Below the pieces are notes generated by a model, which ran no database searches, was not told the origin of the DNA, and worked only from the letters and a program-made list of their open reading frames with translations. This document shows, one piece after another, positions 12,563 to 49,415 of a DNA stretch of 64,000 nt. A program made the position numbers and the translations under genes. The DNA is from Zygnema cylindricum (taxonomy: Eukaryota; Streptophyta; Zygnematophyceae; Zygnematales; Zygnemataceae). Numbering within the stretch: the stretch's first letter is position 1; the number at the start of each line of letters is the position of its first letter. The DNA lies in the NCBI GenBank assembly GCA_037447655.1, contig JBBHKE010003121.1, forward strand, positions 186,001-250,000, in the 5' to 3' direction.

Positions 12563-12800
12563 TACACCGTGTATCGCTATTAGTGTTAATGTCCATTTTG
12601 TCTCTTAAAAAGGACCAAAGGAGTGAAACATTTTTCACTGTACACACATGTGCGATTGTGGAATCTGACGGGTGCGATTGAAAGGTGAGATTCCCAGCTT
12701 CCGATTGGCGGTCTCAAACTGAAAATCGGACAAGTGTGTACGGAGAAAATATGTTTTAAGTGGCGAAAAAAATATCAACACTATTAGCGATACACGGTGT
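12563..12800. mobile_element. Palindromic MITE, copy 3
   Basis: Starts TACACCGTGTATCGCTATTAG and ends CTATTAGCGATACACGGTGT. The left arm is partly rearranged (ACATTTTTCACTGTACACAC), while the right arm keeps the family sequence (AAAATATGTTTTAAGTGGCG). It lies 40 bp from copy 4. Confidence 0.75.
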
Positions 12801-12840
12801 GTAGTATTGTTGTTTTCCGACGTTTGAAACATCCGTCAAG

Positions 12841-13045
12841 TACACCGTGTATCGCTTCAGTGTTAATATTTTTTTCGCCACTTAAAACATATTTTCTCCA
12901 TACACACTTGTCCGATTTTCAGTTTGAGACCGCCAATTGAAGCTGAGAGTCTTACCTTTCAATCGCAACCGTCAGATCGAAAAATTGACATGTGTGTACG
13001 TTAAGTGGCGAAAAAAATATTAACACTAATAGCGATACACGGTGT
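12841..13045. mobile_element. Palindromic MITE, copy 4
   Basis: Starts TACACCGTGTATCGCTTCAG and ends CTAATAGCGATACACGGTGTA, with complementary arms over about 60 bp. The right arm lacks the GGAGAAAATATGTTT piece present in copy 3. The central GAGACCGCCAATTGAAGC is shared with copies 2 and 3 (in copy 3 in the opposite orientation). Confidence 0.78.
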
Positions 13046-15130: not shown

Positions 15131-15629
15131 TACACCGCGAATCGCAATTAGAGTAAATTACTCTAATTCGGTCGCTCGAAATTTTGACTCTATCACATGA
15201 AATAGACTAAATGGTTATAATTTTTTCATTATTCTATTTAAGGTAAAGCTTAATTAGCGTTTTTAATTCTAATATAGGTTCGTTTTAAATAGTGTGGAAT
15301 ACGGACGACGTGCAAAATTGTACTTTATTAAGTAAAAAAGTTCAAATAATGATTTAATACAGGCCGTTATCATGTAACTGCGTTTTAACAAACCGTGTAA
15401 TGCAAACGTCATAGTGACGATAAACTGGACGGTTTGCCAAATTCTGTACAAATACCTTATTTACAGTAGAGGATATTAGCGTGCCAAATTATAGTACTTA
15501 AATTAATTAGAGTAAACTTCATAGTTTAAAAATTTCTATCACATAAATTAGCATTAATTACTCTAATTGTTTTTTTTTTAGTTTTTGTACTCTAATTTTT
15601 TTATTACTCTAATTACGATTCGAGGTGTA
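15131..15629. mobile_element. Possible 0.5-kb TIR element of the same superfamily
   Basis: The left end is TACACCGCGAATCGCAATTA, followed by GAGTAAATTACTCTAATT; the right end is ACTCTAATTACGATTCGAGG, then TGTA. The termini are inverted with TA at both edges. The interior is AT-rich and non-coding. Confidence 0.45.
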
Positions 15630-15649
15630 GTGTCATTTATATTTTCACT

Positions 15650-16890
15650 TTCTCTTGAGTGAATCCCTTCCACTACTCCCAAAATTTTAATTTCTTCCAA
15701 CTTATCTAAATGCACATATCCAAGCCTTTTATGTTATAACATAATATCATGAACACCATCATAATAAAGTTTCTTCTTTTCATTGCTTAAAATCAGCCTA
15801 AAAATCCTTTCGTTGCCTTTTTCAGCAGTGAAATAAAATCCCTCTTCAAAACTTGCCGTAAAGGTTCCCTTCCTAGTGTTAGTTTCAAAACCTTTATCAT
15901 CCAACACTAATGTTGGGATGAGGATTTTGTGTAACTCAAGAATAAAAAACATGTCAGAGAATATAACTATTGTTGTCTTTCCCTCCACTAAGACTTTCAT
16001 ATCTACCGATCGTTCCAAAGTAGTTGTTACCACCCTCCCATCCCCAACCTCTAACTCTACGTTGGGAATCTTTCTTATCTTAGTGAATAAGTGTTTATCC
16101 TTACACATGCGTATAGAAGCAACTAAATCCATAATCTAATTTGTTTCACTTATGAATCCTCCATAGGCACATTTCTTTTTTCGTGGAATTTTGAGCTCGG
16201 TCTTCACCTCCATCTCCTCATCCAACAAAAGCTCATCGTCCTCGGAATTCCTCTCATGTATCTTTGTCACAAAAGCCTTTTCTTTTCTCTCGGTGGTCTT
16301 ATCTGGCCCTCCTTTAATCGGAGTTCTGTTAGTTTAAAGCACTCCGCCATATAGTGGTCCGATTTCTTACAAAAATGACACAGTACCCTTCAAACCCCTC
16401 GGTCTGGACTCATTTGTCCGGTTTATCTGCCCCCCCCCCCACCTGCATAGCTTCCAATCAGCTTCGTTGGGTCCTTGTTCCTCCAATCGATTCCGACTCT
16501 CAAAGCTTGGTCGCTCTTTCCTCCCCTCCGGATCTCTGTTGTATTCTCTCGGACGAGAATCATCCCTCCACGGAGTTCAATATCCATCTGGAATCCTGTA
16601 GATCTTGCACACTGTTAACTATATTTTCTTAGTCATCACGCACCTCCATAAATAGACAATTCACTTTACCTTTCCAGCATTCTCTTACTCCATGAAGAGG
16701 TTAGCAAGCTCATTACAAAAATCTAGCATCTTCCCCCCTTTGTATTCATATGCATCAATTTATTGATCTCCCAGCTGTTGTTGTTGAATTGTACTACTTT
16801 GGTACATTTATATAAGTGTCACCCATAGATGAGATGCCCTTTCCACTTGCAAATAAGGTGATGCAAGTCCTTGGGTAAGATGAAAAAGTA
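15650..16890 (-). pseudogene. Copia gag-protease relic (family 1 related)
   Basis: Read on the minus strand, the segment gives gag (16890 to 16150) and then protease (16140 to 15734). The zinc knuckle at 16380-16339 reads CHFCKKSDHYMAEC (CX2CX4HX4C). The protease-side frame contains KDKHLFTKIRKIPNVE and GDGRVVTT, aligning with the intact element at 24.34-24.42 kb. Frames are shifted or stopped repeatedly, and the Asp-Ser-Gly site is lost (the sequence runs into a stop then MDLVAS). Integrase, RT and RNase H are absent, and homology fades near 15,650. It is non-functional and older than the copy at 22-28 kb. Confidence 0.85.
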
Positions 16891-16899
16891 TAGAGCTCA

Positions 16900-22151: not shown

Positions 22152-22156
22152 AAGAC
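22152..22156. repeat. Target site duplication, left copy (AAGAC)
   Basis: AAGAC directly precedes the 5' LTR and is repeated directly after the 3' LTR at 28573-28577, giving the 5-bp duplication expected of copia integrase. Confidence 0.9.
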
Positions 22157-22364
22157 TGTTGAAATAAGTAGTTTTTAATATATTTTCTAGGTCTAAATTT
22201 ATTAGAAAAGAAAAAGTAGGCAGCCTACCTCTATCTCTTCTCTCTCTCGCCCCCATACTTGTTGTAGTCACTGAAGGAGAGAGAGAGAGAGCAATGGAGC
22301 CATGGCTGCCTCAACTCCATAGGAAGGACTAAAGAGTGGCTTAAGCCACTCTCAACAAAAGGTT

Positions 22365-22441
22365 GAGTCCGGAAGGACTCGAACCCCCGACCGATAGAGC
22401 GCGGCGTAGCCGTTAGCTCTAACCAGTCTGTCGTAGAAGTC
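22365..22441 (-). other. tRNA-like sequence antisense in family 1 LTR
   Basis: Read on the minus strand: TA at positions 8-9, a D-arm-like AGACTGGTTAGAGC, a possible anticodon loop CTACGCC (ACG would be Arg), B-box GGGTTCGAGTCC, and an acceptor that pairs about 5 of 7. The anticodon stem has mismatches and the variable region is long, so this is a degenerate tRNA or tRNA-derived module. It is repeated at 27745-27821 in the 3' LTR. The segment GAGTCC-GGAA-GGACTC also forms its own small hairpin. Confidence 0.5.
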
Positions 22442-22972
22442 CGTTAGGAGATATAGGGTTTCATTAGTATTTAGACTATTGTAATGTACTAGATTCATTT
22501 AACTGAAACCCTCAACGCCACACATAGATACAGTTCTACGAAATACGAAGTACTGTACTTGTTTGAAATGGATATCGCGCATTTTGTTTCGAAAGCGAAA
22601 CAAATATCGCGCAAGTATTTATTACGGCCGAGATTGAATTTCACGTCAAATCTAACGGCGCACATTATCGCCGAAATCCCGGAATGGTCATTTTGGCATT
22701 TAGTGACGTGGCATGACCTGGCGCCACGTGGGAAGACATCATTCGGTCGCGGGAATTCCGAGGAACGTACGGACGAGTGGAAAGTGGACACGCGTCCACT
22801 TAATGGCCTTGTCGTACAGAGGCCGTACAGAAAGTACATCGGCAGTAGTACTTTCTTGTACTATACTGTTTTTGATTGGTTCGTACAGGCAGTAGATAGG
22901 AGCTGTGAGAGGGAAGTAGGAAAACTAGGACTTAGGAAAATTTAAGTAGATAGTCCTCTCTCTGAGAGTTTG

Positions 22973-22979
22973 TATAAAT
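22973..22979 (+). promoter_or_regulatory. LTR TATA box
   Basis: TATAAAT about 215 bases before the LTR end. The older LTR on the minus strand keeps a TATATAAAA in the equivalent place (about 17490-17500). Confidence 0.65.
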
Positions 22980-23173
22980 TGGCATCTTTGCCACCCTATA
23001 ATTTATCGCCTGGTTGGCCTTTTTCAGTGATTCTTTTTTCTACGGACTCAGGGGAGTCCAGGCTACACAGGGGTGCAGTCAAATTGTCAGTTTGCCTTCT
23101 TGGGCAGCAGTGGTTGTGGCTTAAAGTGGGTTAGTTAAATACTATCTAGAGGCTTCCTGTATTCTGTGGTCCA

Positions 23174-26100
23174 ATGGAGGACACAGAATTGCAGGTTATG
23201 GGCCCACCCTCTAGGGTGCCCACCTTCAATGGATCTGGGTTCATCTATTGGGAAGCCATGATGATGGGAGCTTTGTGTGAAAAACGATACTGGGGTATCG
23301 TCAGTAGACAAGTGAAACGTCCACCTTCGGGAACTCCACCAGGATTTGGGGGAGTAAGGTTTCCTGCAACAACGGCTGCCTCGACGGAGGAGGCAGATGA
23401 TGGGGACAGCAGTGTGTCCGAAAAGGGGAAAGGGAAGGAGACACCCCTCACTCCTATTGCCACAGTATCGAGAGCGGCAACCGTGAAGACCGTGGAGAAC
23501 GATACTCAAATGTGGGAGGATGTAAACATGGCTGCCAAGAACTTCATTCTGAGGCACCTCACTCAAGGTTTGGCCACTCCTCATCTTCACATTTACAAGG
23601 CCGAGGAGTTGTGGGTGAGTTTGGTGGAAATTTATAGAGCTGGAACTATTCAGGAGCTCCAGTTGGCTGAGCAAAAGCTATTGAGTTACACTTACAAAGG
23701 AGGAAAGATGTTAGATTACTGTAATGATCTTTCTTGTTTGTATACGGAAATGGAAAGTGCCGGGTGGATAGGTACAATGAAAATGAAAGTTAACACCCTT
23801 ATCATGAAATTACCAAATGAGTTCGAAAACTTAGTGTACCGAGTACAAGGAATGCCTGATAGTTCATGGAAATGGAACACAGTAGTCAGGATGATACTTG
23901 TGCAGGAAAACACAATGGAGATTAGGAGAGGAGGAAAGAGCATTCAAGCTCTAGCAGTAGGGAGGGACCGATGGGGGAAGGACCCGAAGAAACCTTATAG
24001 AGGGGAAAGAGATCATTCAGGGGGACAGAGGCCCCCAAAGGGTCTTTGTCATTATTGCAAAAAGCCGGGACACTTTATTGCAGATTGTGTCAAGCTATCA
24101 GAGTTGAGGCTCCAAGAGAACCGTGGAGGGGGTTCTTCCGGAGGGAAGAAAAAGGCACTTGTGGTTACAAAAGTGTCAGGAGAAACCGAGGATGAGTCCT
24201 CTGAGGAGGATGGGGAGCTTCTTCTTGACGAGAGTTTGGAGGAGAAGGAGATTCCTCGGAGGCAGAAGTGTGCCCTTGGAGCCATCCGGGAAGCTCCACA
24301 GGAAGGATGGATCATCGACTCAGGTGCATCCATGCATATGTGTCGTGATAAAGAACTCTTCACTAAGTTAAGAAAGATTCCTACTGTAGAGATAGAGTAT
24401 GGGGATGGGAGAGTGGTTACTACAGATCTAGTGGGATCAGTAGATCTGAAAGTCTTAGTGGAGGGTAAGACTTCTATACTTACATTCTCAGATGTACTTT
24501 ACATTCCTCAGCTGAGTAAAAATCTTGTCTCTACGTCTGTGTTAGATGACAAAGAGTTTTATACCTTCTCCAGAAAGGGAGTCTTTACAGCTAAGTATGG
24601 GGATGAAGTTTACTTCACAGCAGATAAGGGTAGCCAAGGAATGTTTAGGCTTAACTTGAGTAATGAAAAGAAGAATGCTTACTATGTTGGTGTTCCTAAG
24701 GTGATGATTTGGCATAAGCGGTTGGGGCATGTACATTTTGATAGGTTAAGGGAAATGAAAAAACTTGGGGTAGTAGATGGCATTGAATTTGGGGATAATG
24801 AAATGATGGATGAATGTAGTGGTTGTGCTCAAGGTAAGGCTCACAGACTTCCCTTTCCCAAAGCCGCCACATATAGAGGTGAGAAAGTATTAGATTTAGT
24901 CCACACAGATATTTGGGGGCCTGCAAAAGTACCTTCGGTTGGAGGAAAGAGGTTTATGATGACAATAACTGATGACTGGTCTAGATACTCTAGAGTCTAC
25001 TTTCTGAAAACAAAGTCTGAAGCATCAACTTACTTCAAAGAATATAAAGCTTGGAGTGAGAAGTTGCATGAAACCCCCATTAAGAGGATAAGGAGTGATA
25101 ATGGGGGGGAATATACCTCTAGCGAGTTTGAGGAATATTTGAGAGATGAGGGAGTGCAGCACCAGAAAACTGTACCATATAACCCAGAACAAAATGGGGT
25201 AGCTGAGAGGTTGAATAAAACACTGGGAGATAGTGCATGCAGTATGTTGGCAGACAAGAAAATAGGAAAGAGATTTTGGGCAGAGGCAATGAACTGTGCC
25301 AACTATATTAAAAATAGAGTCCTTACCTCAGCTGTAAAGGGAGTGACACCTTATGAGAGATGGGTTGGAAGGAAACAAGATATCTCACACCTTAAAGTAT
25401 TTGGTAGCCAAGTTTACAGTCTTGACACGGATAGGAAAAACTGGAAACTAGATGCTAAGGGAAAACCTGGATACTTTGTGGGATATGATGAGGATGTTAA
25501 GGGATATAGAGTCTATGACTTAGCAAAGAAAGATATCATTCTGGTCAAACACTTAGTTGTCATGGATGAAGGGAAGTCATTTGACCCCTTCAAATATACA
25601 AAGAAGATAAGGATCAGATTTGAGTCCGAAAGTGAGGAGAACTCAGTCGTTCCCGAAAAAGACATGAGTGAAACTGTGATTACAGATTCAGGGGAGATCG
25701 AAGATACAGGAGACTCACCGGAAACCTCACATACTCCTATGGACTTCGAGGAGATGGAAGAAGCGGGACAAGATACGGTTTTTATAGACAGGGGAGCCGA
25801 TGAGACAGTGAGAAGAAATCCAAGACTTCCATCCATTCCAGCTTCGGAGTTTGAGGGAGGAAGGAGGAGCAACAAAAGGATACAAGAAAAACAAGCTGCC
25901 CATAAGGTAACTAAGCTATCTCACCCAGATGAGCCTCAGTCTTACTTAGAGGCAGTGAATAGTCCAGAGAAAGAAAGATGGATTAGAGCCATGAATGATG
26001 AGATGGCTTCTATAATGGAAGCAAATACTTGGGAACTAGCGGATTGCCCTCCAGACAGAAAACGTATTGGATGTAAATGGGTATTTAAACTAAAACTGAA

Positions 26101-27523
26101 CCCAGATAATACAATTGAGAGGTATAAGGCTCGATTGGTAGCGAAGGGGTTCACCCAAAAAGAGGGGATTGACTATGAAGAGACCTTTGCTCCAGTTGTT
26201 CGGTTCCCATCGGTAAGGATTCTCCTCAGTCTGGCCGCAGCGGAAGACATGGAAATTCACCAGATGGATATTAAGACTGCTTTTCTTAATGGTGAGTTAG
26301 AGGAAGAAATTTTTATGAGGCAACCCGAGGGGTTTGTGGAAGAAGGAGAAGAGAGCAAAGTGTGCAGGCTCATAAAGTCTTTATATGGACTAAAACAGGC
26401 TCCCCGATAGTGGAATAAGATACTAGATGAGTTTCTCACCGATCTGGGGTACATCCGGATCAGCTCTGACCATTCTATCTATATGTTTGAAGATGAGAAT
26501 GGTGTCATTTTTATTGCAATTTATGTGGATGATCTGCTTGTGTTAAGTAAGTCTTTAGAGAATATCAATAGGCTAAAGAAAGATCTTAGGGGCAGATTTG
26601 ATATGAAGGATTTAGGGGAAGCAAAATATATTTTGGGGATCCAAATGGAGAGAGATAGGGGGAAGAAGATTATCAGACTTACTCAGAAAGAAGCAATAGG
26701 TAATATGCTTGAGAAATTCCAGATGGAAAATGCTAACAGTTGTACCACTCCCATGGACTTGAAAAAAGGAAGTGATGGGAGTGTAGAAGGAGGAGTGATG
26801 ATCTTAGACGATCAGATGAGTCCAGAGGAGAGAGAGTTCATGAAGTCTATCCCTTATAGACAGGTCGTAGGAAGCTTAATCTATTTTATGAATTGTACAA
26901 GGCCGGACATAGCGGCGGCAGTTGGTGTACTCAGTAGGAGTCTTAATGATCCTAGGAAGAGGGATTGGGAGGCAGCCAAGAGAGTCATGAGATATCTGGT
27001 GGGAACTAGAGAGTTATGGTTGCATTTGGGAGGGGAGCACACTGACATCACTACTTGGAGTGATGCCAGTTATGGGGACGCACCTATGAGACGATGCACT
27101 TCTGGGTATGTGTTGTATGTTGGGGAAGGTGCTTGCTGTTGGAGCAGTAAGCAACAAAAGGTGGTTGCTCAATCTACTATGGAGGCTGAGTATATGGCGT
27201 CTTGTTCTGCTGTGAAAGAACTAATGTGGGTGAAGTCATTATTGCAAGAACTGGGATATATGAAGGAGGGAGTGCATGAAATCTTTTGCGATAATCAAGC
27301 TGCAATCGCAATCGCAGCCAATCCAAAACATCATTTCAAAGCAAAACATATGGACATAAGATTAAGCTTCGTAAGAGAAAAAGTTGAAAATAAAATTTTA
27401 AATCTTGTGTATAGAACTGATGAAGAAATGGTGGCTGACATGATGACCAAACCTGTGCCCTCTCCTAAATTAAAATATTGTCGGGAGAAATGCGGGTTAA
27501 AAGAAAAATTAAAATTTGACTAG
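23174..27523 (+). CDS. gag-pol: Copia gag-pol polyprotein, interrupted by one TAG
   Basis: A single frame of 1449 codons encodes the retrotransposon structural and enzymatic polyprotein. Gag: residues 1 to about 370, with zinc knuckle CHYCKKPGHFIADC (about 291-304). Aspartic protease: IIDSGAS (DSG at about 381-383). GAG-pre-integrase: WHKRLGH (512) and CSGCAQGK. Integrase: HTD (about 578), RSDNGGEY (about 641) and NGVAERLNKTL (E about 678). RT: WVFKLKLNPDN, HQMDIKTAFLNGELEEE and YVDD (about 1117). RNase H: SDASYGD, QSTMEAEYMAS, FCDNQAA and VADMMTKP. The start ATG lies 20 bases inside the LTR and is the only good one before VMGPPSRVP. Codon 1079 is TAG where relatives read Gln (LKQAPRQW), so RT/RNase H would not be made without readthrough. 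Downstream sequence stays in the same frame, which points to one point mutation. Confidence 0.93.
23194..23208 (+). promoter_or_regulatory. Primer binding site for half initiator tRNA-Met
   Basis: GGTTATGGGCCCACC starts right after the LTR. It is the exact complement of nucleotides 26-40 of plant initiator tRNA-Met (anticodon arm GGUGGGCCCAUAACC, recalled from the known plant sequence), not of the tRNA 3' end (TGGTATCAGAGC would be expected for most plant copia). Drosophila copia is known to prime from a tRNA-iMet cleaved in the anticodon arm. The same bases are gag codons for VMGPP. Confidence 0.85.
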
Positions 27524-27524
27524 A

Positions 27525-27536
27525 AAATAAGGGGAG
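27525..27536 (+). promoter_or_regulatory. Polypurine tract, family 1
   Basis: AAATAAGGGGAG sits directly before the 3' LTR, one base after the polyprotein stop. It is the plus-strand primer site and is preserved next to the old LTR at 18259-18270. Confidence 0.9.
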
Positions 27537-28572
27537 TGTTGAAATAAGTAGTTTTTAATATATTTTCTAGGTCTAAATTTATTAGAAAAGAAAAAGTAGG
27601 CAGCCTACCTCTATCTCTTCTCTCTCTCGCCCCCATACTTGTTGTAGTCACTGAAGGAGAGAGAGAGAGAGCAATGGAGCCATGGCTGCCTCAACTCCAT
27701 AGGAAGGACTAAAGAGTGGCTTAAGCCACTCTCAACAAAAGGTTGAGTCCGGCAGGACTCGAACCCCCGACCGGCAGAGCGCGGCGTAGCCGTTAGCTCT
27801 AACCAGTCTGTCGTAGAAGTCCGTTAGGAGATATAGGGTTTCATTACTATTTAAACTATTGTAATGTACTAGATTCATTTAACTGAAACTCTTAACGCCA
27901 CGCATAGATACAGTTCTACAAAATACGAAGTACTGTACTTGTTTGAAATGGATATCGCGCATTTTGTTTCGACAGCGAAACAAATATCGCGCAAGTATTT
28001 ATTACGGCCGAGATTGAATTTCGCGTCAAATCTAACGGCGCACATCATCGCCGAAATCCCGGAATGGTCATTTTGGCATTTAGTGACGTGGCATGACCTG
28101 GCGCCACGTGGGAAGACATCATTCGGTCGCGGGAATTCCGAGGAACGTACGGACGAGTTGAAAGTGGACACGCGTCTACTTAATGGCCTTGTCGTACAGA
28201 GGCCGTACAGAAAGTACACGGCAGTAGTACTTTCTTGTACTATACTGTTTTTGATTGGTTCGTACAGGCAGTAGATAGGAGCTGTGAGAGGGAAGTAGGA
28301 AAACTAGGACTTAGGAAAATTTAAGTAGATAGTCCTCTCTCTGAGAGTTTGTATAAATTGGCATCTTTGCCACCCTATAATTTATCGCCTGGTTGGCCTT
28401 TTTCAGTGATTCTTTTTTCTACGGACTCAGGGGAGTCCAGGCTACACAGGGGTGCAGTCAAATTGTCAGTTTGCCTTCTTGGGCAGCAGTGGTTGTGGCT
28501 TAAAGTGGGTTAGTTAAATACTATCTAGAGGCTTCCTGTATTCTGTGGTCCAATGGAGGACACAGAATTGCA
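27537..28572 (+). repeat. 3' LTR, family 1
   Basis: Nearly identical to 22157-23193, with about 14 substitutions and one missing T near 28,218. Ends GAATTGCA followed by the AAGAC duplication. Confidence 0.95.
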
Positions 28573-28577
28573 AAGAC
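28573..28577. repeat. Target site duplication, right copy (AAGAC)
   Basis: Matches 22152-22156. The next base but one begins the 5' LTR of the family 2 element. Confidence 0.88.
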
Positions 28578-28637
28578 ATGCGTCATCATTTGAGTGCAGC
28601 ACTGGACAACGCAACTGCGACCTAGACAAAACAACAC

Positions 28638-28770
28638 AGCTGCTATGCAGACAGAGCAGCGCAACAGCGCAGCTGCTATGCAGACAAAGCAGCGCAGCAG
28701 CACAGCTGCTATGCAGACAGAGCAGCGCAGCATCGCAGCTGCTATGCAGACAAAGCGGCGCAGCAGCAAA
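28638..28770 (+). repeat. 33-bp minisatellite in LTR U3
   Basis: AGCTGCTATG starts at 28638, 28671, 28704 and 28737, an exact 33-base period. The 3' LTR (33705-33890) has more and shorter units, so copy number and period have changed since insertion. Apparent Gln/Ala-rich frames here are the repeat translated. Confidence 0.85.
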
Positions 28771-28921
28771 GCTGCGACACAGACAGGACAAACGCAGCTG
28801 CGGTTACTTTGAATATGATGCGTACAGACAACCCAGCTGTTGTTATCTTGTATATGATTCAGTACGGGACACAGCAGCTGCGTTTGATATAAACCAAGTC
28901 AATGGACCTCAACTTAGTGGG

Positions 28922-28977
28922 TAGCTCAGTGGTAGCTTAGTGGTAGCTCAGTGGTAGCTTAGTGGTAGCTCAGTGGT
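28922..28977 (+). repeat. Array of A-box-like 11-mers
   Basis: TAGCTCAGTGG and TAGCTTAGTGG alternate five times head to tail. TAGCTCAGTGG is a textbook tRNA A-box (D-arm) sequence. No B-box was seen nearby. The 3' LTR keeps degenerate versions at 34036-34075. Confidence 0.75.
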
Positions 28978-29309
28978 AGCTTGACAGATTAGTACTAGCT
29001 TGGTAGATTGAAGTACCACTCTGGTACACTGGTACTGCCAGTACAACACAAGTATAAGACTTAGGACTCAAAACACATCTTGTATCCAAACTTCCAAGTA
29101 GTAAAATTGCAGACAGTTTTTGGGAAACTTCTAAGTATTATATCTTGAGTGTTGTTCGGTAAATTGTACTAAAACTTTGAGAGTTGTCAGTGTGTATGCT
29201 GCTCTATACTTTGATAGAGCTGTGTGAAATTTGGATGTTTGTATAAGAGTTGTTGAGCACGTGTAAACAATTGTTTTGTAGGATTCTTGATAGCTTCTAA
29301 TAGTGTATC

Positions 29310-30087
29310 ATGTCTACTTCTACTTCTACTGCTGCTCCTCCACCTGCACCGGTGGTCGTAGAACAACAAGTTATGGGCATGTCATCAAGAATTCCTATCT
29401 TTTCGGAGGAAAAGTATGTTTATTGGGCGGATATGGTGGAGACACATTTTGAGAATGTCAATCTTTTGGATATATTGGATGGTTCGCTTGATGAATCTGA
29501 TCCGTCATTATCTAAGAAAAATACGTAGGCTCGTTCTATTCTGAAATTTTGTATATCTGAAGACTTAGCTATTGGTGTCAGATAAAAATGAAAAAAATAA
29601 TTGATATTTGGAAATCTCTTGAAAATGATTATGAAAAAGCTAATGTCCAGGAAGAGCTTCTATTAGCTGGAAAAATTTGGGACTATAAGTACATTGGTGG
29701 TACAATGGCTGAATATTCTAACAAATGTCGCATCCTTGTAGATGCACATGCTTAAGCAGGTGGGTTGTTTCCTCAGTTTCAACAAGCAGCATTACTCATG
29801 AGGGGTCTCCCTCGTAGTATGAAAGGAGCATCTGATATGCTCAAGCAGAAAGATAAGGCTAGCTGGACTTTACAGTTAGCTATCAATGTTGTACTAGAGG
29901 AGGAAGCTACATCTAATATTCTAAATGTTGAGAAAGTAGAGGCTTTTAATTCAAAGTTTGAGAGGAAAGGACAATTTAATCAGCAAAGGAATCAGTTTAA
30001 TCAGTTAAGACAGTTTAACCAAGGTGGAAAAAGACAATCCAACAATGCATGTTTCTATTGTAGTGAGAGAGGTCATGGATAAAAATT
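29310..30087 (+). pseudogene. Family 2 gag relic
   Basis: Starts MSTSTSTAAPPPAP inside the LTR, then VMGMSSRIPIF, parallel to VMGPPSRVPTF of family 1. A TAG at 29526 falls where a Gln codon is likely (CAG to TAG). Further stops and frame changes lie at 29580-29760. A frame at 29765-30082 has the capsid-like LLMRGLPRSMKG and a zinc knuckle ACFYCSERGHG with a stop inside the knuckle. The segment AGTTATGGGC at 29369-29378 is a weakened form of the half-tRNA primer site. Confidence 0.85.
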
Positions 30088-30267
30088 ATGTCTTAAGCTT
30101 AAAAAGGCTAACGATACAGGTTTATAAAGGCCGGGTTGGCAACAAAGTAAGTTTTACAAAAGCTTCACGGGGCATACGCCTCGTAGAAATGCACTATTTT
30201 CGGCTTTTTTGTCTCTCCAATACGAGACTTTGACATTTCTGCGGAGGACTAAACGGAGCTATTTGCT

Positions 30268-31570
30268 ATGGCGACAACAATGGAGGGCGCGAAGGACCTT
30301 AGATGGATAATGGTTACGGGAGCGTTTGTCCACATGTGCTGGAACAAGGCCATCATCAAAAATCTTAAAACAACGCCGGAGAAAAATATTTATTATGCTT
30401 GTGGAATGAGTGTTCAGACTCGTGCTGTGGGTGATGTATCCTTGCTAGTTGATATAGAAGGAAAAGCAATTGAAAGGACTCTTCACAATGTCTTATTTGT
30501 GCCTGACTTTAAGAAAAATATGTTTTCTACGTCTTTGGTAGAGAATAAAGGCTTTGAGATTAATTTGAAAAATGGTCGGCAGGTTGTTAGCAAAAATCGA
30601 AAAGTTGTGGTTACAAGTACTAGAGATAACAGCAAGATGTACCGCATGGATATAGCTTTTACCAAGGAAAATGATGTTCTATACTCCGGTGTTTTGCACT
30701 CAGATGAGTTGTGGCATAAAAGATTAGACCATGTAAACTATGATATTTGAGAAAAATGGTCCTTGCTGGAAAAATAGAGGGTGTATCAATTATAGATCAG
30801 CCAGTCAAAACATGTGATTGTTGCGCTTTAGGCAAAATCCACAAAATGCCATTTCCTAAAGAGTTTGAGCATCGGTCAACAAAACTTTTACAACAAATTC
30901 ATTCGGATGTTTTTGGGCCTGCGAAGGTTCCATCTGTCGGGGGGATGAAGTATATGGTCACCTTCACAGATGATTTCTCCAGGTTTACAAAAGTTTACTT
31001 CATGAAAGAAAAGTGTGAGGTGTTTGGTCACTTCAAACACTATAAAGCATGGGTTGAAAAACTTCATAATTTACCTATTTTGCAGCTCTGATCGGACAAT
31101 GGTGGTGAATACACATCGAAGGAATTTGGAACCTTTTTATTCGAGGAAGGTATAAGTCATCTATCGACTGTTCTATATTCACCGAAACAAAATGGGGTAT
31201 CGGAGAGATTAAATAGAACTCTTACGAAGAGCTCTAGGTCGATGCTCGCAGATAAAAATGAGGATCTACATTCTGGGATGAGGCTCTAAATTGTGCAGTT
31301 TATATTAAGAATATGATAGGATCAAGATCGGTAGAAACTACTCTTTACGAGATCTGGACAGGTAGCAAACCAGATGTTAGTCATTTTAAGGTCTTTGGTA
31401 GTCAATGCTTTATCTTGGATACGTCTACAGATAGATGGAAAATGGAACCGAAGGGATTACCGGGTATTCTGTTAAGATATGATGATCACTCAAAAGGTTA
31501 TAGAGTCTTCGTGTTTGAGAGGCAGAAAAATAGTTGTAGCACGAAATATTATTGTAAAGGATGAACTTGA
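30268..31570 (+). pseudogene. Family 2 protease and integrase relic
   Basis: Protease-like EGAKDLRWIMVTGAFVHMCW keeps spacing but not the DSG triad (VTG instead). LWHKRLDHVNYDI then shifts frame by one base. CDCCALGKIHKMPFPKE, IHSDVFGPAKVPSVGGMKY (first integrase Asp) and, after CGA became TGA at 31089, SDNGGEY (second Asp) follow, then NGVSERLNRTL (Glu) in another frame. The C-terminal SHFKVFGSQCFILD is recognisable. Several breaks exclude function. Confidence 0.85.
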
Positions 31571-31785
31571 CTCCATAGATTTATTTCAAATGACAGTGCA
31601 GCAAAAGCAGCAAAATGTACAGGAGTATGTCATTTTAAAGTGCATGCAAGAAATTGTCCCGTAGATGCAACATTCTCTATTGGTGACTCCGTATTTCGCC
31701 TCTCTCGAAGTTCCTCCGCGAGTCCAGTTCCAACCGGACCACCAGCGGTCAATACACAAAGATCGCAACCAGCACAATCAGCGTA

Positions 31786-33483
31786 ATGCGCGGCATCCGA
31801 CGATCTCAGCCTCAGAATTTCCTAGGGGAAGAAGATCTAGCAGCCGCCTGCAAGCAAGCTCTCACTTTGCCTATTCAGAAAACCTCAGGGGAGCCTTTGA
31901 CCATCCAAGAGGCCTTCTCATCACCAGAGCGGAACCAATGGATTGAGGCAACAAATGACGAAATGAAGTCCATCATGGAGACTCAAACATGGGAGTTTGT
32001 GGACCTTCCTCCGAACCGAAAAGCGATCGGCAGCAAATGGGTATTCAAGGTGAAGTTAAATCCTGATAATACCATTGGACAATATAAATCCAGACTTGTG
32101 GCAAAGGGTTATAATAAAAAGGAGGGCATTGATTTTGAAGAAACATTTTCTCCGGTTGTAAGATTTCCGACAATTAGGATTTTGCTGTCCTTAGCTGCTA
32201 TAGAAGATATGGAAATACATCAGATGGATGTAAAAACAACCTTTCTGCATGGAGAACTAGAGGAGACCATTTACATGCAGCAGTCTGAAATGTATGCAGA
32301 ACCAAGAAAAACACACTTACCATGCAAATTGTTAAAATCTCTGTATGGTCTGAAATAGGCCCCTAGGCAATGGAATCTGAAGCTTGATGAATTTTTAACT
32401 AGCCTACGATTTTAATGAATAAGCTCTGATCACTCAGTCTATGTTCTAAAGGGTGAGGATAGGATAGTATATATAGCGGTGTATGTAGATGATTTACTAT
32501 TAATTAGCAAATCAATGGCTGAAATTAACAAAATCAAAACTACTCTAAACTCACGGTTCGAGATGAAAGACCTTGGTGAGGCAAAATATACTTTAGGTAT
32601 CCAGGTAGAGAGGGACAGAAATAATAAAGTTATAAAGTTGACTCAAAAAGAGGCTATTGGAAACATGTTAGATGAGTACCGAATGTGGGGGGCAAAAGGA
32701 TGTCTAACTCCAATGGAGTTTCGGCAGAAGTTAGAAGGAGAAGAGACGGAACCGGGTGTCATTGTTAGCGAGTATTTAGAGTCACGGGAGAATGATCCTA
32801 TGACACTAATACCTTACACACTAAAACCTTACAGACAGATAGTGGGAAGCTTAATATATTTCATGAACTGTACCCGTCCTGACATTTCTGCAGCAGTTGG
32901 GGTACTGAGCATAAGTCTTGAGAATCCGAGAAAATCTGATTTTGATGCAGCAAGGAGAGTCTTAAGATATTTGGCCGGAATCAAAGACCTCAAACTCACA
33001 CTAGGCGGAGGAGAAGTAAAACTGCAAACGTGGAGTGATGCAAGCTATGGCGACATGCCAAGCCGGAAATCCAACACGAGAATCGTTCTACAAATTGGGA
33101 ACGAGACTTGCTGTTGGAGCAGCAAACTTCAAAAGGTTACAGCACAGTCGACAATGGAGTCAAAATATATGGCAGCAAGCTCGGCCCTCAAAGAACTCTT
33201 ATGGGTAAAATCCATGTTACAAGAACTAGGATACATGGAAGTTGGTCCACAGGTGATCTGGTGTGATAACTTGGCTGCCATTGCCATTGCTTCTAACCCG
33301 AGTCATCACTTCAAAAGCAAGCACATGGATGTACGATTACACTTCGTAAGAGAAAAGGTGTTCTCTAGAGTGATTAAATTATGTTATTTGCCAGATGCAA
33401 AAATGATTGCTGATATGCACACTAAAGCCCTTCCTGCTCCTAAGCTTAAGTATTGTAGGGACGCAGTGGGATTAAGGGAATAG
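31786..33483 (+). pseudogene. Family 2 RT and RNase H relic
   Basis: RT motifs: SKWVFKVKLNPDNT, HQMDVKTTFLHGELEE, then TAG in place of Gln at LYGLK_APRQW, a TAA-TGA pair about 20 codons later, then YVDDLLLISKS. RNase H motifs: WSDASYGD, TAQSTMESKYMA, WCDNLAAIA and IADMHTKALP. The last 334 codons (32479-33483) are open. Losses are mostly C-to-T style changes at Gln or Arg codons. Confidence 0.88.
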
Positions 33484-33643
33484 TTGAATTGCTGCACTGC
33501 TATACTAACACTCTACGATAATTCCACCATTGTGAGATAGTGGGACTGGGTGACTTGCTAATTGCTATATTGCTATGCTGTGATGTTGCGCTAGTTTATC
33601 ACCGCAGCTGCGCCATGATACTGAGTCTAAAGCTTTAGGGGAG

Positions 33644-34461
33644 TGTTGTCTTTTTGGAAAGCTTTCAGTCTCAGAGCAACGTAGCTACTTTAGAGACAAA
33701 GCAGCGCAGCTGCTATACAGACAGAGCAGCGCAGCTGCTATACAACAGAGCAGCGCAGCTGCTATACAGCAGCGCAGTTGTTATACAGCAGAGTAGCTGC
33801 TATACAACAGAGCAGCTGCTATACAGCAAAGCAGCGCAGCAACAGAGCAGTTGCTATACAGCAGAGCAGCGCAGCAGCACAGCCGCGCAGCAGCGAAGCT
33901 GCAACACATACAGGACAAAGGCTACCATGATTATATTTGATATGGTCCGTACAAACAACGCAACGTCTAATATTCTTAATGTGATTATGTACAGGATAGA
34001 GCAACTGCGATAGATACGATTCTAGTAAGCTTAGTCATAGCTCAGTGGTAGCTTAGTGATAGCTCAATGGTAGCTTGACAGATTAGTGGTAGCTTGGTGG
34101 TTTGATGTACCTCTCAAGTATAATGGTGTTGCCAGTTCAACACAAGTATAAGACTTAGGACTCATAACATATTTTGTATCCAGACATCCAAGTAGAAAAA
34201 CTTCAGATAGTTTTGGGAAAATTCTGAGTATTATATCTTGAGTGTTGTCGTGTCAATTGTGCTATAACTTTGGGAGTTATCAGTGTTTATTCTACTCTAT
34301 ATTCTGATAGAGTTTTGTGAGGTTTAGATGCTTGTATAAGACTTGGTGAGCACTTAAGAACAGCTTTTTGGTAGGATTCTTGATAGCTTCTGAGAGTGTA
34401 TCATGTCTACTTCTACTACTACTGCTGCTCCTCCACCTGCACGAGTGGTTGTAGAACAACA
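33644..34461 (+). repeat. 3' LTR, family 2
   Basis: Starts TGTTGTCTTTTTGG after the polypurine tract, holds an expanded GCAGCTGCTATACAG minisatellite, and ends GTAGAACAACA. Downstream sequence is unrelated Ty3/gypsy remains. Confidence 0.85.
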
Positions 34462-36335: not shown

Positions 36336-36897
36336 ACAAACTTTGATGTACAAGGCACTTGGGGTCGAGGAGACAGGTTGCTTTTCACTACTGTCTCCTA
36401 TGAAAACCCTCAGAAATTCCAACAAACCTTCTTTTTGAGAATATTTGTCTTGTTTTCGACCATATTGCCATCTTGGTTTTGAATCTGTCTTTTGTGGAAA
36501 TCAGAGTCCAGGCGGGTAGTTGGCACTATCTTCCTTTTTAAATGATTTTCAACTTTGTGTTGTTTGAACCTATAAGAGTCTGGTCGGTTCTAAGCTGCGG
36601 ACACCAAAGGTTGCAAGATTACCATACGTTTTTACGAGACTATCGAGGAGGAGTCGCTGCTTTCTAATTGTCATCGTTAATTGTTGGGGTATGTTAAGCT
36701 CGTTTCGTTATATTTCACATTTTCTATCTTTTATTCTCTTTTTTGGGGCGAGGGGATATTGTTTAATCTGGAAATCCAATCATATTTATTGATATATATA
36801 TCTACGTGAGAGTGCATTTGTGTCTTCGTCTAGAGTTCCCTTGTGCTTTAGAGTGACAGATCCGGAGTAAACTGTGGGCCCTTCCCTCACGTTAATC

Positions 36898-38044
36898 AGG
36901 CAAGCCCGACAACTTGAAGTTGGATGAGCTTTTAACTGGACTACGTTTTAAAAGAAATAGTTCAAATCACTTTGTGTATGTTTTCAAGGGTGAAGATGGA
37001 GTACTTTATATTGCTATATTTGTAGATGATTTATTACTTATCAGCAAATCCATTAGTGATATAAACCGCATTAAGGTAGCCTAAAAAACAAGAGTTGAGA
37101 TTAAAGACCTTCGCGAAGCCAAGTATATATTCAGAATATAAGTAAAGTGAGATAGAAAAAATAAGCTAAACATGCTAACTCAAAAAGAGGCTATAGGAAA
37201 TATGTTATAAAAGTTTGAAATGAAGGAGATAATCGGGTGTATAACAGTTATGAAGTTCAGGCAAAAATTAGAGGGAAGTGATTTTGACTTGGATATTATG
37301 GTCAGTGAAAGGCTAAAGTCAGGGGAGGAGGATTTGGTAGCTTCTAAACCATACAAGTAGGTAGTGGGGAGCCTCATTTAATTTATGAATTGTACAAGGC
37401 CTGATATTGCAGTTGGTGTAAGTGTTCTAAGCAGAAGCTTGCACAATCCATTGGTGTTCAAAATAGAAGTTTGCTGAATCCAAAAAGCTCAGAGTGGGAA
37501 GGTTCTAAGATATGTGACAATGACTCAGAACCTCAAACTGGTTCTTGGAGGAGGACTAGTGAAATTGCAGACTTAGAGTGACGCAAGTTATGGCGGCAAA
37601 CCTAGTAGAAAATCAACGACCGAGTTTGTCCTAGAGATTGAAAATGGAACCGCTGTTGGAGTAAGCTCTAAAAGGTCACAGCTCGTCTACAATAAAATCT
37701 GAATACATGGTAGCAAGTTTTGCCCTTAAGGAACTTGTATGGGTTAAGATACTTTTGCAGGAACTTGGCTACATGTAGATTGAACCTCAAGTCATTTGGT
37801 GTAATAATCAAGCAGCTATAGCCATTTCCTCCAATCCCAATCACCACTTTAAGAGTAAATATATGGATGTCACACTTCATTTTGTTCGAGAAAAGGTGCT
37901 TGCTAGAGTCATTAAACTGTGTTATTTACATGATAAAAGGATGATGGCAGATATGTTAACCAAAGCCCTTCCTACCCCTAAGTTATAGTTTTGTAGAACA
38001 GCTATAAGGTTAAGTGAGTTACAGAGTCTAAAGGTTTAAGGGAG
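36898..38044 (+). pseudogene. Copia RT/RNase H relic, unit A
   Basis: Starts QARQLKLDELLTGLRF (the RT region after LKQAPRQW), then FVDDLLLISKS (YVDD box as FVDD), LTQKEAIGNML, FMNCTRPDIAVGVSVLSRS, SDASYGG and a degenerate RNase H tail. At least a dozen stops occur. Closest within the window to family 2. It ends in the polypurine tract GGTTTAAGGGAG at 38033-38044. Confidence 0.85.
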
Positions 38045-39306
38045 TTTTGGATTTAGAAAGCTTTGTCCTTAGTAGATGGGGCTCAGAGGGGAGCTTTAGC
38101 ACTTAAAATATTTGGTCTAAAGTTAGATACAATACTTACCTTTTATAGTATTACAATAGAAAAGAAATAGTGTATTGTACTTTTAGAATGACTTGCCTCA
38201 GCACTTGAGGACCTTGCATGTACTTCGAAATGGCCCCAACGCCCACATACACATGGTAAACATCGAACGAGTGAATTTGCACAATCGGATAGACGAAATT
38301 TGAAGCAAATATCCCGAAAATGTCTTGTACATAAGCAAGTATGAATCATTAATACGAATCGAGTCAACGGACGCGATTGGAGTGGGGACCACAAGTGACA
38401 AAATTTGCCGTACGTACTCAGGTGTTTCGTAGTGCATGACTACAATTGGCGGGACTTTTGTGACCAATGCCGTCTAAGCGGCAACAACATTAAATGTACG
38501 GTTTTATATTGTGAATATATGAAAAACAATTGTTTGTAGTTAAGCACATTGGGAAATAGTGTTTCATTCTTTATTTTGTGGCAAGTTGCAATTCAGGTTT
38601 TGGAAGTACTATGGGTAAACTGACGTACAATTTTAGTATTTTGTCGTATCGTGGTACATTAATACAGTTCGAGGTGTAAACATCTGATTTGACGGTTTCC
38701 ATTACACATACAGTTCGAGGTGTAGACATCTGATTTTATGTTGAGCATTAGACACTCACTCAGTATAAAAATTTAGGACTTAGTGAAATTTATGTATCCA
38801 GTTTTGAGACTATGATAATCTAAAGGCAATTTTAGGGAAACTTCTAGATGCTATGTCTTATGGTTTACCGGATCAATTAGGCTCTAATTTTGGGATTGGA
38901 TCAATTAGGATGTAGTTTTGGGAATTGGCAGTGTGTTAGGTGTTATGAATTTGCGCTTAATTTGGTGTGGATTGGACTTTAGGGTTGGACTTTGTAGTGT
39001 ATGAAAAACAACTTTTTAATAGAATATAAGAGGTGTAATTTTGGAAATTGGCAGTGTGTATCGTGGACTTTGTTGTGTCTGAAAGACAACTTTTTGATAG
39101 GATGTAAGAGCTCTAATTTTGGGAATTGGCAGTGTGTATGGTGTTTTGTATTTGTGCTTAATTTGGTTTGGATTGAACATTTGGGTTGGACTTTGTAGTG
39201 TTTGGAAAACAACTTTTTCATAGGATACTTGTTAGCTTCTGCTTTTAATCATGTCTACATCTACAACTATTGATGCAGCTCCACCTATGCCAATGGTAAT
39301 AGATAT
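38045..39306 (+). repeat. Family 3 LTR, unit A
   Basis: Begins TTTTGGATTTAGAAAGC (TGTTG degenerated) right after the polypurine tract; this parallels the start of the family 2 LTR. It ends around the segment encoding MSTSTTIDAAPPMPMVIE, the gag start, as in family 2. It contains three copies of an about 80-bp tandem repeat at about 38940-39230 (TTGGCAGTGTGTATNGTG / AACAACTTTTTNATAGGAT). Confidence 0.7.
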
Positions 39307-39381
39307 ATAAATTCAAGAGGAATTATTTGTAAGTTTCTTTCAAAAACGAAGTCAAATGGGAGTGATCGAAAAAAAAATGTG

Positions 39382-40052
39382 AAAATGGTGGCATTTTTGT
39401 GTTGCGAAGGACTTCAACCAGTTTCAATAGTCGACAGTTTAGGTATGATTAATTTTGAATTTAATTTAGGATGGGTTTAATATGTATGTCATTATAACTT
39501 ATACATTGGAGCTACATCACTATTTTCTTTTCATTCTTATCATATCTTAAATTTATATTCGTACGTTTTTTTTTTAATTATTATTATTTGTTTGTGATGT
39601 TGTTGTTTTTGATTTGTCTATCCATAAAAATAAATTGTCTCGATAATACCCTTTTTTATTGATCTTGGTTAGTAATTGTAAGATATTTTCTTATTGTTTT
39701 TTTTTTCCCAAATTTCAAGCATTTTGTCAAACATTATTTGATGTTAGTGTTTCATCCAACAAAAGTGTTGACATTGATCAACTACTCCCGTTTGTGAATA
39801 ATGTAAAAAAAATACATTATACCTTCCACAAAAGATATTCGTAGTTTGATCCAAACAAAACTTAAAGAAAATATTGATAGCAATATTTTTGTCGCATTTA
39901 GGACCAATTTCCGAACCAAGAAAATATAAAGAACCTCATTCATGTTAGTAACCGCTCATTTTATCGAAAAAGAATTTAAACTTCATGCACGCAAGCTTCA
40001 AGTTGACCATTTTCCGGAGGAAAAACATACCGCGCAAAACGTTTTAACGGCA
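39382..40052 (+). pseudogene. hAT-type transposase relic, unit A
   Basis: The piece MVAFLCCEGLQPVSIVDS is followed by GTATGATTAA, a T-rich 240-base intron-like stretch, and CAAATTTCAAG, then FCQTLFDVSV. Later frames read SLIQTKLKENIDSNIFVAF and VTAHFIEKEFKLHARKLQV, which match the order seen in hAT transposases with a BED finger. Stops and one frameshift break it. N-terminal BED finger and the C-terminal dimerisation domain are missing. Confidence 0.65.
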
Positions 40053-40089
40053 AAAAATAACCAAATTTGAAATGTCTGAATTTGATGTT

Positions 40090-41100
40090 TTGGAAAAGTG
40101 ATCATCATAGACTTAGCACACTCAATCAAAGCCCTATTGAGTCTCTCAACAACACCATTTTGTTATAGATTGTACAGAACAATAAACTCTTGAGAAATTC
40201 CATTTTTTTTCAAGTAATCAATTAATACATTTGTCTCTCCACCATTTGTTACATACTCTCCACCGTTGTCAGAACGCAAAACAAGGATTGAGTTCCAGTG
40301 GAGTTTCTCTGCCCAAATCCGGTAAAACTTGAAATGCATGAAAACCTCACTCATCTCATTCATGAAATAAACTCGTCTGAAACGCGAGTAGCTATTTGTG
40401 AAGGTGACAATGTATTTGCAGCCACCAAGGGAAGGGACTTTGGCGGATCCCCAACTATCTCAGTGGATAAGGCCGAGAAGATCAGGCCGAGAAGATCCTT
40501 TGCTCGGTGATGTGAAAAATGAGGTAAGGGAAGCTTATGAAGCTTCTCGAGAGCACAACCATCACAAACATGGGACTCTTTTTGACTAAGTGGAACACCT
40601 TTCATCATATTAGTCTTAACCATCGTTTCCAATATGTCATTATGCACATGCCAAGTCTTTTATGCCACATAACATTTTCAGAAAAGACAATGGAGTATTC
40701 AAAATCCGCTTTATTAAGTAAGACCATCTGATACAACATGTTTGGGTCTTTGGTTCTCAGTAAGGCTTATTTATCATCCTTTCTTACTATTTTTTTGCCT
40801 TTGCTCTAAAGAACATCAAGTCCCTTACTTTATGCAATAGAGGTAGAAAACACATTTTTCTTAAATTTTGGAACATATAAAACGTCATGCAAAGTTCTTA
40901 TTACAGATTTCCCATTATTCCAAAATTCAAATCTATGTTACCTTTAGCATTTGCTTTACTTGTAGCACCACAAACATGAAAGTTATGATAAGTAGGGATA
41001 AGTGGCATATCATTGACATATGATTTGTTCCAATATATGTATGAGAAACTACCGTAATCCATAATCCACCCGAGATCTTTCTCTCCCTCCTTCATCTTGG
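40090..41100 (-). pseudogene. Copia protease and integrase relic, minus strand, unit A
   Basis: Read on the minus strand: EGEKDLGWIMDYGSFSYIYW (protease region; DYG replaces DSG) at 41095, then CDGCALEKLHKLPLP (pre-integrase) near 40,570, and LRSDNGGEYVTNGGE (second integrase Asp) near 40,260, then a stop and NGVVERLNRAL near 40,150. It stops abruptly against the hAT relic near 40,090. Confidence 0.82.
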
Positions 41101-41149
41101 CGAAAAAAAATAAAACTCAGTGTCATCAACTTAGGGAAACTCACAATCT

Positions 41150-41880
41150 GTGATATTTATTCTTCTATATCTCCTTCACCGGTTTCTATTTTGCCGCAAA
41201 AAAAGCCATAATTTTGATTTGAGGCCTCGGTGTAAACGGGGCTTTTACTTTCTATCCATTTCGATAAAAACATGTTTCACACGCTTTTATATTCAAAGGG
41301 CAAGATCTGAACAAATGACAACCTTCTCCATCACCTTCACCGGTTCCTCTTTTTCTGCAGAAAAAACTGCAACTTTGATTTGAGGCCTCGGTGTAAATGG
41401 AGCTTTTACTTTCCATCCCTTTCGATAAAAGCATGTTTCAAATGCTGTTATATTCAAAGGGCAAGATCTGAAAAAAATTCCATTTTTATAGTAATAACTG
41501 ATTTCTAGATTTGTTATCTCTATGAAATTGAGCACCTTCTCAATCTCCTTCACCGGTTCCTCTTTTTACCCCAAAAAAGTCGCAGTTTTGATTTGAGTCC
41601 TCGGTGTAAATGGGGGTTTTACTTTCCATCCCTTTTGATAAAAACATGTTTCACACGCTTTTATATTCAAAGGGCAAGATCTAAGAAAAATGACCATCTT
41701 CTCCATCTCCTTCACCGGTTCCTCTCTTTCCGAAGAAAAAGGCGGAGCTTTGATTTGAAGCCTTGGTGTAAATGGAGCTTTTGCTTTCCATCATTTTCAA
41801 TAAAACCATATTTCACATGGTTTTATATTGAAAGGGCAAGATCTAAACAAATTACCATTATTATAGTAATAACTGATTTC
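41150..41880 (-). repeat. Four-copy duplication inside gag, unit A
   Basis: A 150-165-base unit (plus strand: CTCCTTCACCGG ... TTGATTTGAGGCCTCGGTGT ... TTTTATATTCAAAGGGCAAG) occurs four times. Units 2 and 4 are each followed by the same 70-base spacer (TAGTAATAACTGATTTCTAG), so a doublet plus spacer was itself duplicated. On the minus strand each unit encodes CETCFYRKGWKVKAPFTPRP or a close form, probably derived from the gag zinc-knuckle region. Confidence 0.8.
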
Positions 41881-43365: not shown

Positions 43366-44582
43366 GAGGTATCCTAGAGGCTTCTTAGAAGTTGTTCACT
43401 ATGAGGACTTATGGAGGTCTCAGAGTTTTAGGTTATGGGCCCACCCTCTAAGGTACCAATATTTTATGGAACAAGCTTTATATAGTGGGAAAGTATGATG
43501 ATAGGAGCTCTATGCGAAAAAAGGTTTTGGGGGATAGTGAGTGGACAGTTGGGGCGTCCATCAAGTCTTGGAATCCCTCCAAGGTTTCGATGAAGCAGAT
43601 TCACCAGGAAAGAGGATCCACCTTCAACGGAGGAAACAGAGGAAGGAGAGGTGGTGGACAAAGGAAAGGAGAAGGAGACAACCACACCAATAGGAATTGG
43701 TTCGGCATTCATGTCACCTATTCCGAGGAACGAGGAGAATGATATTGAACCCTGGGACTTCAACAATATGGCGGCAAAGCACTTCATCCTACGCCATCTC
43801 ACTCAAGGACTTGCATGTCCTCATTTGCAGGTAGAAAGGGCATCCGATCTTTGGATGGCTCTCATAAAGATGTACAAAAGTGGTACAATTTAGCAACAAC
43901 AGCTGGCTGATAAAAAAGTTAAGGAGTATGTATACAAAAAGGGGAAGATGTTAGATTTTTGCAATGAGCTTGCTACACTCTTCATGGAGCTAGAGAGAGC
44001 GGGAAAAGATTTTAGTGAAAAAGAAAAGGTTAACTGTTTTATGATGAAGTTACCTGATAAGTTCGAGAACATAGTCAACCGTCTGCAGGACTTGGCGGAC
44101 TCAAGATGGATATGGAACTCAGTGGTAGGGATGATTCTCATTTGGGAGAATACAATTGTGATCCGAAAGGGAGGAAAGAGTGGCTAAGCCTTGGCAATTG
44201 CGATCGATTGGAGGAACAAGGATTCCCGAAAACCGGTGAGAAACTATGAGGGAGGGAGCAGAAAAATCAGACCGACGAGTTTTCGGACCAAGGGCTCCAA
44301 AAGGTTTATGTCATTTTGTAAGAAACCTAGGCACTATATGGTAGAGTGCACTAAACTAACCGAGCTTTGGTTAAAGGAGGGGCAAACCGGTGATACCTCG
44401 AGAGGAAAGAAAAAGGCCTTGTGACACAAGTACATGAGGCGGAATCCGAGGGCGAGGACGATGAGCTCATTTTAGATGAGGAGTTGGAGGCGAAAAACGA
44501 GGTCGAAATTCCACGAAGGTAGAAATGTGCTTACGGTGGATTGAAAGGTGAAGCAGGCTGGATTATAGATTTAGGTGCCTTG
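43366..44582 (+). pseudogene. Family 1 LTR end, gag and protease-start relic between the duplications
   Basis: 43366-43430 matches the last part of the family 1 LTR (TATCCTAGAGGCTTC). GGTTATGGGCCCACC at 43431-43445 is an intact half-tRNA primer site. Gag follows with frameshifts: LRHLTQGLACPHLQVERA, MLDFCNELATLFMELERAG, then a zinc knuckle (FCKKPRHYMVEC, first Cys lost by a 1-base change), and IPRR-like and GWIIDLGA (protease DSG region). It is cut at that point by the start of unit B. Confidence 0.85.
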
Positions 44583-47586: not shown

Positions 47587-47660
47587 ATATATTCAAGAGG
47601 AGATATTTGTAAGTTTTTTTCAAAAACGAAGTCAAATGGGAGTGATCGAAAAAAAAATGT

Positions 47661-48332: not shown

Positions 48333-48369
48333 AAAAATAACCAAATTTGAAATGTCTGAATTTGATGTT

Positions 48370-49366: not shown

Positions 49367-49415
49367 CGAAAAAAAAAAAAACTTAGTGTCATCAATTTAG
49401 GAAAACTCACAATCT

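What the first reader, a model, noticed from the sequence alone, without database searches (positions are those of the whole stretch)
23194..23208. Copia element primed by an internal half of plant initiator tRNA-Met
The 15 bases directly after the 5' LTR (GGTTATGGGCCCACC) are the exact complement of the anticodon arm (nt 26-40) of plant initiator tRNA-Met, including the plant-specific GGUGGG side. Most plant copia elements instead pair with the tRNA 3' end. Half-tRNA priming is known for Drosophila copia, so here it would imply a plant-lineage copia clade using a cleaved tRNA. An identical site survives in a relic at 43431-43445.
Basis: partly seen in the sequence, partly recalled or inferred. 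Interest (0 to 1): 0.85.

Follow-up and report, generated by a model that had tools for sequence, protein, structure and literature searches.

The report
Plant copia element primed by half-tRNA
A jumping gene that is very common in a land-plant genome seems to start copying itself from a cut piece of the plant's own start tRNA; this trick was already known in mosses and algae, but here the landing site also lies inside the gene for the coat protein.

Summary
GGTTATGGGCCCACC directly follows a Ty1/copia 5' LTR (22157-23193) and is the exact complement of nt 25-39 of the host's own initiator tRNA-Met genes, which I fetched. The host is a land plant, probably a bryophyte. The genome holds 1517 exact GCA+15-mer sites (reversed control 2). 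With only the flanks fixed there are 888 junctions; of the first 100, 61 keep all 15 bases. No conventional 3'-end tRNA site lies beside this LTR. Half-tRNA-Met priming fits best, but is not new to plants: Neumann et al. 2019 report it for Osser, Bryco and part of Gymco-II. Synonymous bases inside the site barely vary, those outside do, so the constraint is on nucleotides. Base +1 is free (24 of 100 differ; 0-5 of 100 at each of +2 to +15), so the primer most likely ends opposite +2. A new, abundant member of a known kind.

The parts
22152..22156 (+). target-site duplication, AAGAC
   Evidence: same 5 bases at 28573-28577
22157..23193 (+). 5' LTR, TG...CA
   Evidence: 98% identical partner at 27537-28572
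22973..22979 (+). TATA-like box; the first ATG after it is the one at 23174
   Evidence: pattern scan; promoter use not shown
23174..26410 (+). gag-pol reading frame that opens inside the LTR, reads through the PBS and is cut by a premature stop in the RT domain
   Evidence: the ORF listing; Pfam gag, integrase and RVT_2 hits, zinc knuckle below cut-off; in-frame stop upstream at 23147
23194..23208 (+). primer binding site region; base 23194 (+1) varies freely, 23195-23208 is the conserved core; holds an in-frame ATG at 23198-23200
   Evidence: complement of host tRNA genes; variation counts
26483..27523 (+). rest of the RT and RNase H region, same frame, after the stop
   Evidence: RVT_2 hit; homologs, best listed identity 45%
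27526..27536 (+). polypurine tract
   Evidence: AATAAGGGGAG next to the 3' LTR
27537..28572 (+). 3' LTR
28573..28577 (+). target-site duplication, AAGAC
29310..29378 (+). second, older copia family: in-frame ATG in the LTR (LTR end 29368), then AGTTATGGGC, 9 of 10 bases complementary to the same tRNA arm
43411..44421 (+). relic gag (family B) with an identical 15-base site at 43431-43445; this copy has a stop just before the site

Best explanation
A Ty1/copia retrotransposon of a land plant that starts minus-strand DNA synthesis from the 5' half of initiator tRNA-Met, cut next to the anticodon loop. The half-tRNA pairs its nt 25-38 with bases +2 to +15 after the LTR; base +1 is most likely an unpaired spacer between the LTR end and the primer. 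The same bases are translated: Gag starts at an ATG inside the LTR, or possibly at the AUG inside the site, and the site encodes V-M-G-P-P. Shown: position, complementarity to the host's tRNA genes, copy number, nucleotide-level conservation of +2 to +15, free variation of +1, open frame through the site. Inferred: that the tRNA half is the primer, where it is cut, which AUG starts Gag, and that plus-strand synthesis re-copies the site from the tRNA at each cycle.
For: Exact complement to host tRNA genes at the LTR edge. 1517 exact places against 2 control. Flanks fixed, 15 bases free: 888 places, control 0; of the first 100, all fetched, 61 exact, +1 changed in 24, each of +2 to +15 in 0-5 (Fisher p 1e-15). 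Copies with the flanks exact and one change: 110 at +1, 14 at +2. In 83 family-A copies the fourfold synonymous bases inside the site (+4, +10, +13) vary in 2 of 249 cells, third codon bases from +28 to +58 in 110 of 913. With -3 to +1 free: 1126 places; in the first 100 listed, -2 and -1 changed in 5 and 4, +1 in 18. LTR ATG at -20 in 59 of 67 copies, ATG and open to the site in 55 of 67. An older second family in the window has the same layout.
Against: No RNA, cDNA or small-RNA data. This copy is broken (stop in RT). +1 G lies in a CAG context where methylation can drive G to A; in a less filtered sample G at such CHG sites differs in about 25% of cells (A 13, C 5, T 7), as much as +1, so +1 behaves like an ordinary free base and not like a marked hot spot. 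Letters at +1 show no signal on the tree (23 changes against 22.9 shuffled; 22 against 22.7 on 91 copies of which 19 were picked for +1 variants), but four of 99 other variable columns show as little, so this does not prove that +1 is set anew at each insertion. 7 of 67 copies have a stop in the eight codons before the site's ATG, the window's relic too. Conservation of the LTR end could serve integrase. The outside third bases are not all fourfold and were read without gaps, which can inflate their variation. Exact flanks favour young copies.
Confidence: 0.88

Rival explanations
1. The 15-mer is simply conserved gag coding sequence (VMGPP) that happens to match the tRNA.
For: It is in the gag frame of the element and V-M-G is kept in the relic and the second family.
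Against: Synonymous bases in it barely vary: 2 of 249 against 110 of 913 outside. Exact complement of the host tRNA at the LTR edge.
Confidence: 0.03
2. A whole tRNA-iMet pairs through its anticodon arm as an anchor, while priming uses another site or self-priming.
For: Ty1 RNA binds tRNA-iMet at the PBS and two further boxes (passages); self-priming is predicted for TAR and Tcn1 elements. In the second family a 3-mismatch match to the 3'-end site lies at 29573, about 205 nt after the LTR.
Against: No 3'-end iMet site within 23150-23500 at up to 3 mismatches, and apart from the site only 7-base complementarities in 23150-23400; the site abuts the LTR end, as a primer site should.
Confidence: 0.06
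3. The primer ends opposite +1 (tRNA nt 39, as recalled for Drosophila copia) and +1 varies because the primer end is heterogeneous or miscopied.
For: +1 variants include C and T, not only A, and lack tree signal.
Against: An unpaired spacer explains the variation as well; weak tree signal is also seen at four of 99 other variable columns, and free G sites elsewhere vary as much.
Confidence: 0.3

Closest known systems
Bryco, Osser and part of Gymco-II lineages of plant Ty1/copia (Neumann et al. 2019, PMC6317226; section 10 read, other passages seen)
   Same: PBS complementary to a half-molecule of tRNA-Met, in green plants; Bryco is the moss group, which fits a bryophyte-like host.
   Different: No REXdb sequences were at hand, so lineage was not tested; the passages seen do not mention a PBS inside the gag frame.
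Drosophila copia and yeast Ty5 (genus Hemivirus)
   Same: Half-tRNA priming in copia, and priming from a cut in the anticodon loop of tRNA-iMet in Ty5 (passages); genus. That copia uses nt 1-39 of tRNA-iMet is recalled.
   Different: Fruit fly and yeast hosts; here the site carries the plant-type side of the stem and a free +1.
Yeast Ty1
   Same: Gag start codon in the LTR with the PBS inside the gag frame (recalled; the passages seen do not state it).
   Different: Ty1 primes from the 3' end of the whole tRNA (passage).
Bianca lineage
   Same: Half-tRNA PBS in plants.
   Different: Uses 1/2 tRNA-Ile.

Membership tests
Ty1/copia (Pseudoviridae) | gag, integrase before RT, LTRs with 5-bp TSD | tested here: met
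   Pfam order gag_2, pre-integrase, rve, RVT_2; LTRs and TSD
Half-tRNA (Hemivirus-type) priming | PBS complementary to an internal stretch of initiator tRNA-Met, not to its 3' end | tested here: met
Half-tRNA (Hemivirus-type) priming | tRNA half actually used as primer | not testable with these tools
   needs cDNA or small-RNA data
Bryco / Osser / Gymco-II | branching with reference RT, RH and INT domains | not tested
   reference sequences not available; the best listed homologs are unnamed, 45% identity at most (best 120 of 683 listed)
Bryco | moss host | tested here: inconclusive
   host has LHC proteins including a CP24-like one; after one long multi-copy chain (9vfj) the best LHCII matches are 8htu and 7xqp chains, recalled as Physcomitrium patens; host name not given
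Bianca | PBS complementary to 1/2 tRNA-Ile | tested here: not met
   site is the exact complement of host tRNA-iMet

The most novel reading that the evidence does not exclude
In this lineage the AUG inside the PBS, the complement of the primer's own anticodon, is in frame with Gag in what I recall as a strong start context, so the same tRNA may both start Gag translation on it and prime reverse transcription at it. Five Gag codons are then rewritten from a host tRNA at each cycle, and base +1 records where the tRNA half was cut.
Probability: 0.2. Interest if true: 0.6.

Novelty: new member of a known kind. Interest (0 to 1): 0.36.

Why it matters
About 1500 intact sites in one genome make half-tRNA priming in a land plant open to direct test: the cut point predicted from base +1 can be checked against tRNA halves. 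The overlap of PBS and gag lets coding and pairing constraints be told apart in one stretch.

Tried and rejected
Chance match: rejected. Pure coding conservation: disfavoured by frozen synonymous sites. Gag homologs elsewhere: two protein searches found none within their length limits; a viral-contig scan with the RT-RNase H piece found none. Host identity from window ORFs: of the 19 ORFs scanned, three gave retroelement domains, one a below-cut-off EGF hit, the rest nothing. A further contact site for the tRNA: only 7-base matches. The genome counts of conventional TGGTATCAGAGCC sites and of +4 changes were asked for and never answered.

Full report
What is there. The finding sits at the left edge of a full-length LTR retrotransposon. 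The LTRs are 22157-23193 and 27537-28572, 1024 of 1040 aligned positions identical, with TG...CA ends, AAGAC on both sides and a purine tract before the 3' LTR. Pfam finds copia gag, a zinc knuckle (below cut-off), pre-integrase, integrase and RVT_2 domains. The frame is cut by one stop at 26408-26410, so this copy looks dead.

The site. GGTTATGGGCCCACC at 23194-23208 follows the LTR with no gap and recurs at 43431 in a relic. The whole genome behind the window could be searched only now and then: 352.8 Mb, 2689 contigs. Nine places match GGTGGGCCCATAACCCAC. ARAGORN calls six distinct initiator-type tRNA-Met genes among them (two neighbouring genes appear in both L030 and L031), L033 is tRNA-like but not called, and L035 and L036 are element junctions. 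The 15 bases are the exact complement of raw nt 25-39 of the host's tRNA. I had first used a recalled plant sequence.

How common and how constant. The 18-mer GCA plus the site occurs 1517 times, against 2 for the reversed pattern. To avoid choosing by the site itself I fixed 8 bases before and 12 after and left 15 free: 888 places, control 0. The first 100 listed were all fetched and counted by script (92 distinct): 61 exact. Changes per base: +1 24 (A 15, C 8, T 1); +2 to +15: 4, 1, 2, 1, 3, 5, 3, 0, 1, 2, 5, 0, 2, 1. Fisher p for +1 against the rest 1e-15. With exact flanks, copies with one change number 110 at +1 and 14 at +2. With -3 to +1 free instead there are 1126 places; in the first 100 listed, changes are 36 at -3, 5 at -2, 4 at -1 and 18 at +1. 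So +1 is a loose base between two firm parts: the CA end of the LTR and the paired core.

Inside the gag frame. The frame opens at an ATG 20 bases before the LTR end, the first ATG after a TATA-like box, with an in-frame stop before it, and runs through the site as V-M-G-P-P. In 67 exact-site copies (the first 67 listed of 1517), 59 have that ATG, 60 have no stop in the eight codons from there to the site's ATG, and 55 have both. Two sub-families (48 A, 19 B) share the peptide pattern, commonest forms MEDTELQ and MEVSELQ. Read without gaps, majority letters of A and B agree at 4 of 20 and 9 of 20 positions in the 40 bases before the ATG and at 14 of 17 from the ATG to -4; missed indels and integrase needs at the LTR end could add to that step. 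The window's relic has a stop just before the site. An older second family (LTR about 28607-29368) has its own ATG in the LTR, 20 open codons and then AGTTATGGGC at the junction. Because +4, +10 and +13 are fourfold synonymous yet change in 2 of 249 cells, against 110 of 913 for third bases from +28 to +58 in the same 83 copies, the site is held by a nucleotide-level function and not by Gag alone. The outside third bases are not all fourfold and were read without gaps.

Reading. Half-tRNA priming is the best account. If pairing at +1 mattered, +1 should be as firm as +2; it is not, so the primer end most likely lies opposite +2. Letters at +1 are scattered on trees (23 changes against 22.9 shuffled; 22 against 22.7), which would fit being set anew at each cycle. 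Against this: four of 99 other variable columns are as scattered, and G at CHG sites elsewhere differs in about 25% of cells in a less filtered sample (A 13, C 5, T 7), so plain freedom plus some methylation-driven change would also do. I leave that open.

What is known. PMC6317226 states that 1/2 tRNA-Met PBSs occur in Osser, Bryco and part of Gymco-II, and 1/2 tRNA-Ile in Bianca. PMC8515867 and PMC3599292 (passages) define hemiviruses by a short tRNA segment, and the second doubts that the split from pseudoviruses is clear. So the mode is known in plants. I saw no mention of a PBS inside the gag frame of a plant half-tRNA element in the listings of ten paper searches or the passages read; supplements were not open to me, so this is not proof of absence.

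Host. The genome has 88 LHC-domain matches. An LHCII-like protein (L178) scores best, after one long multi-copy chain (9vfj, 550 bits), against chains of 8htu and 7xqp (463 and 462 bits), then 8c29 (439) and 1vcr (433). I recall 8htu and 7xqp as the moss Physcomitrium patens; the output names no organisms. L180 matches CP24, recalled as a land-plant protein. A bryophyte is likely, not shown.

Noticed in passing
36343-43365 and 44585-51625: A 7-kb direct repeat, 95.6% identical, with 1.2 kb holding the gag relic between the copies; looks like a tandem segmental duplication that cuts through a copia relic.
   Followed up: no
28607-34461 (approximate): A second, older copia element of another family right beside the first, LTRs about 75-86% identical, with 33-bp tandem repeats in the LTR start.
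   Followed up: partly
15626-16891, minus strand: Relic gag and integrase pieces of the same clade; the gag N-terminus was not found.
   Followed up: partly
12640-12999: An imperfect inverted repeat of about 360 bp, 85% identical to its own reverse complement.
   Followed up: no
sampled copies, LTR codon 5 (for example L001): Codon 5 of the LTR-encoded peptide often reads K, and in six of 67 copies a stop, instead of E, in both families; cause not known.
   Followed up: no
host contigs C519, C2590, C1116: Dense clusters of LHC-domain matches on both strands.
   Followed up: no
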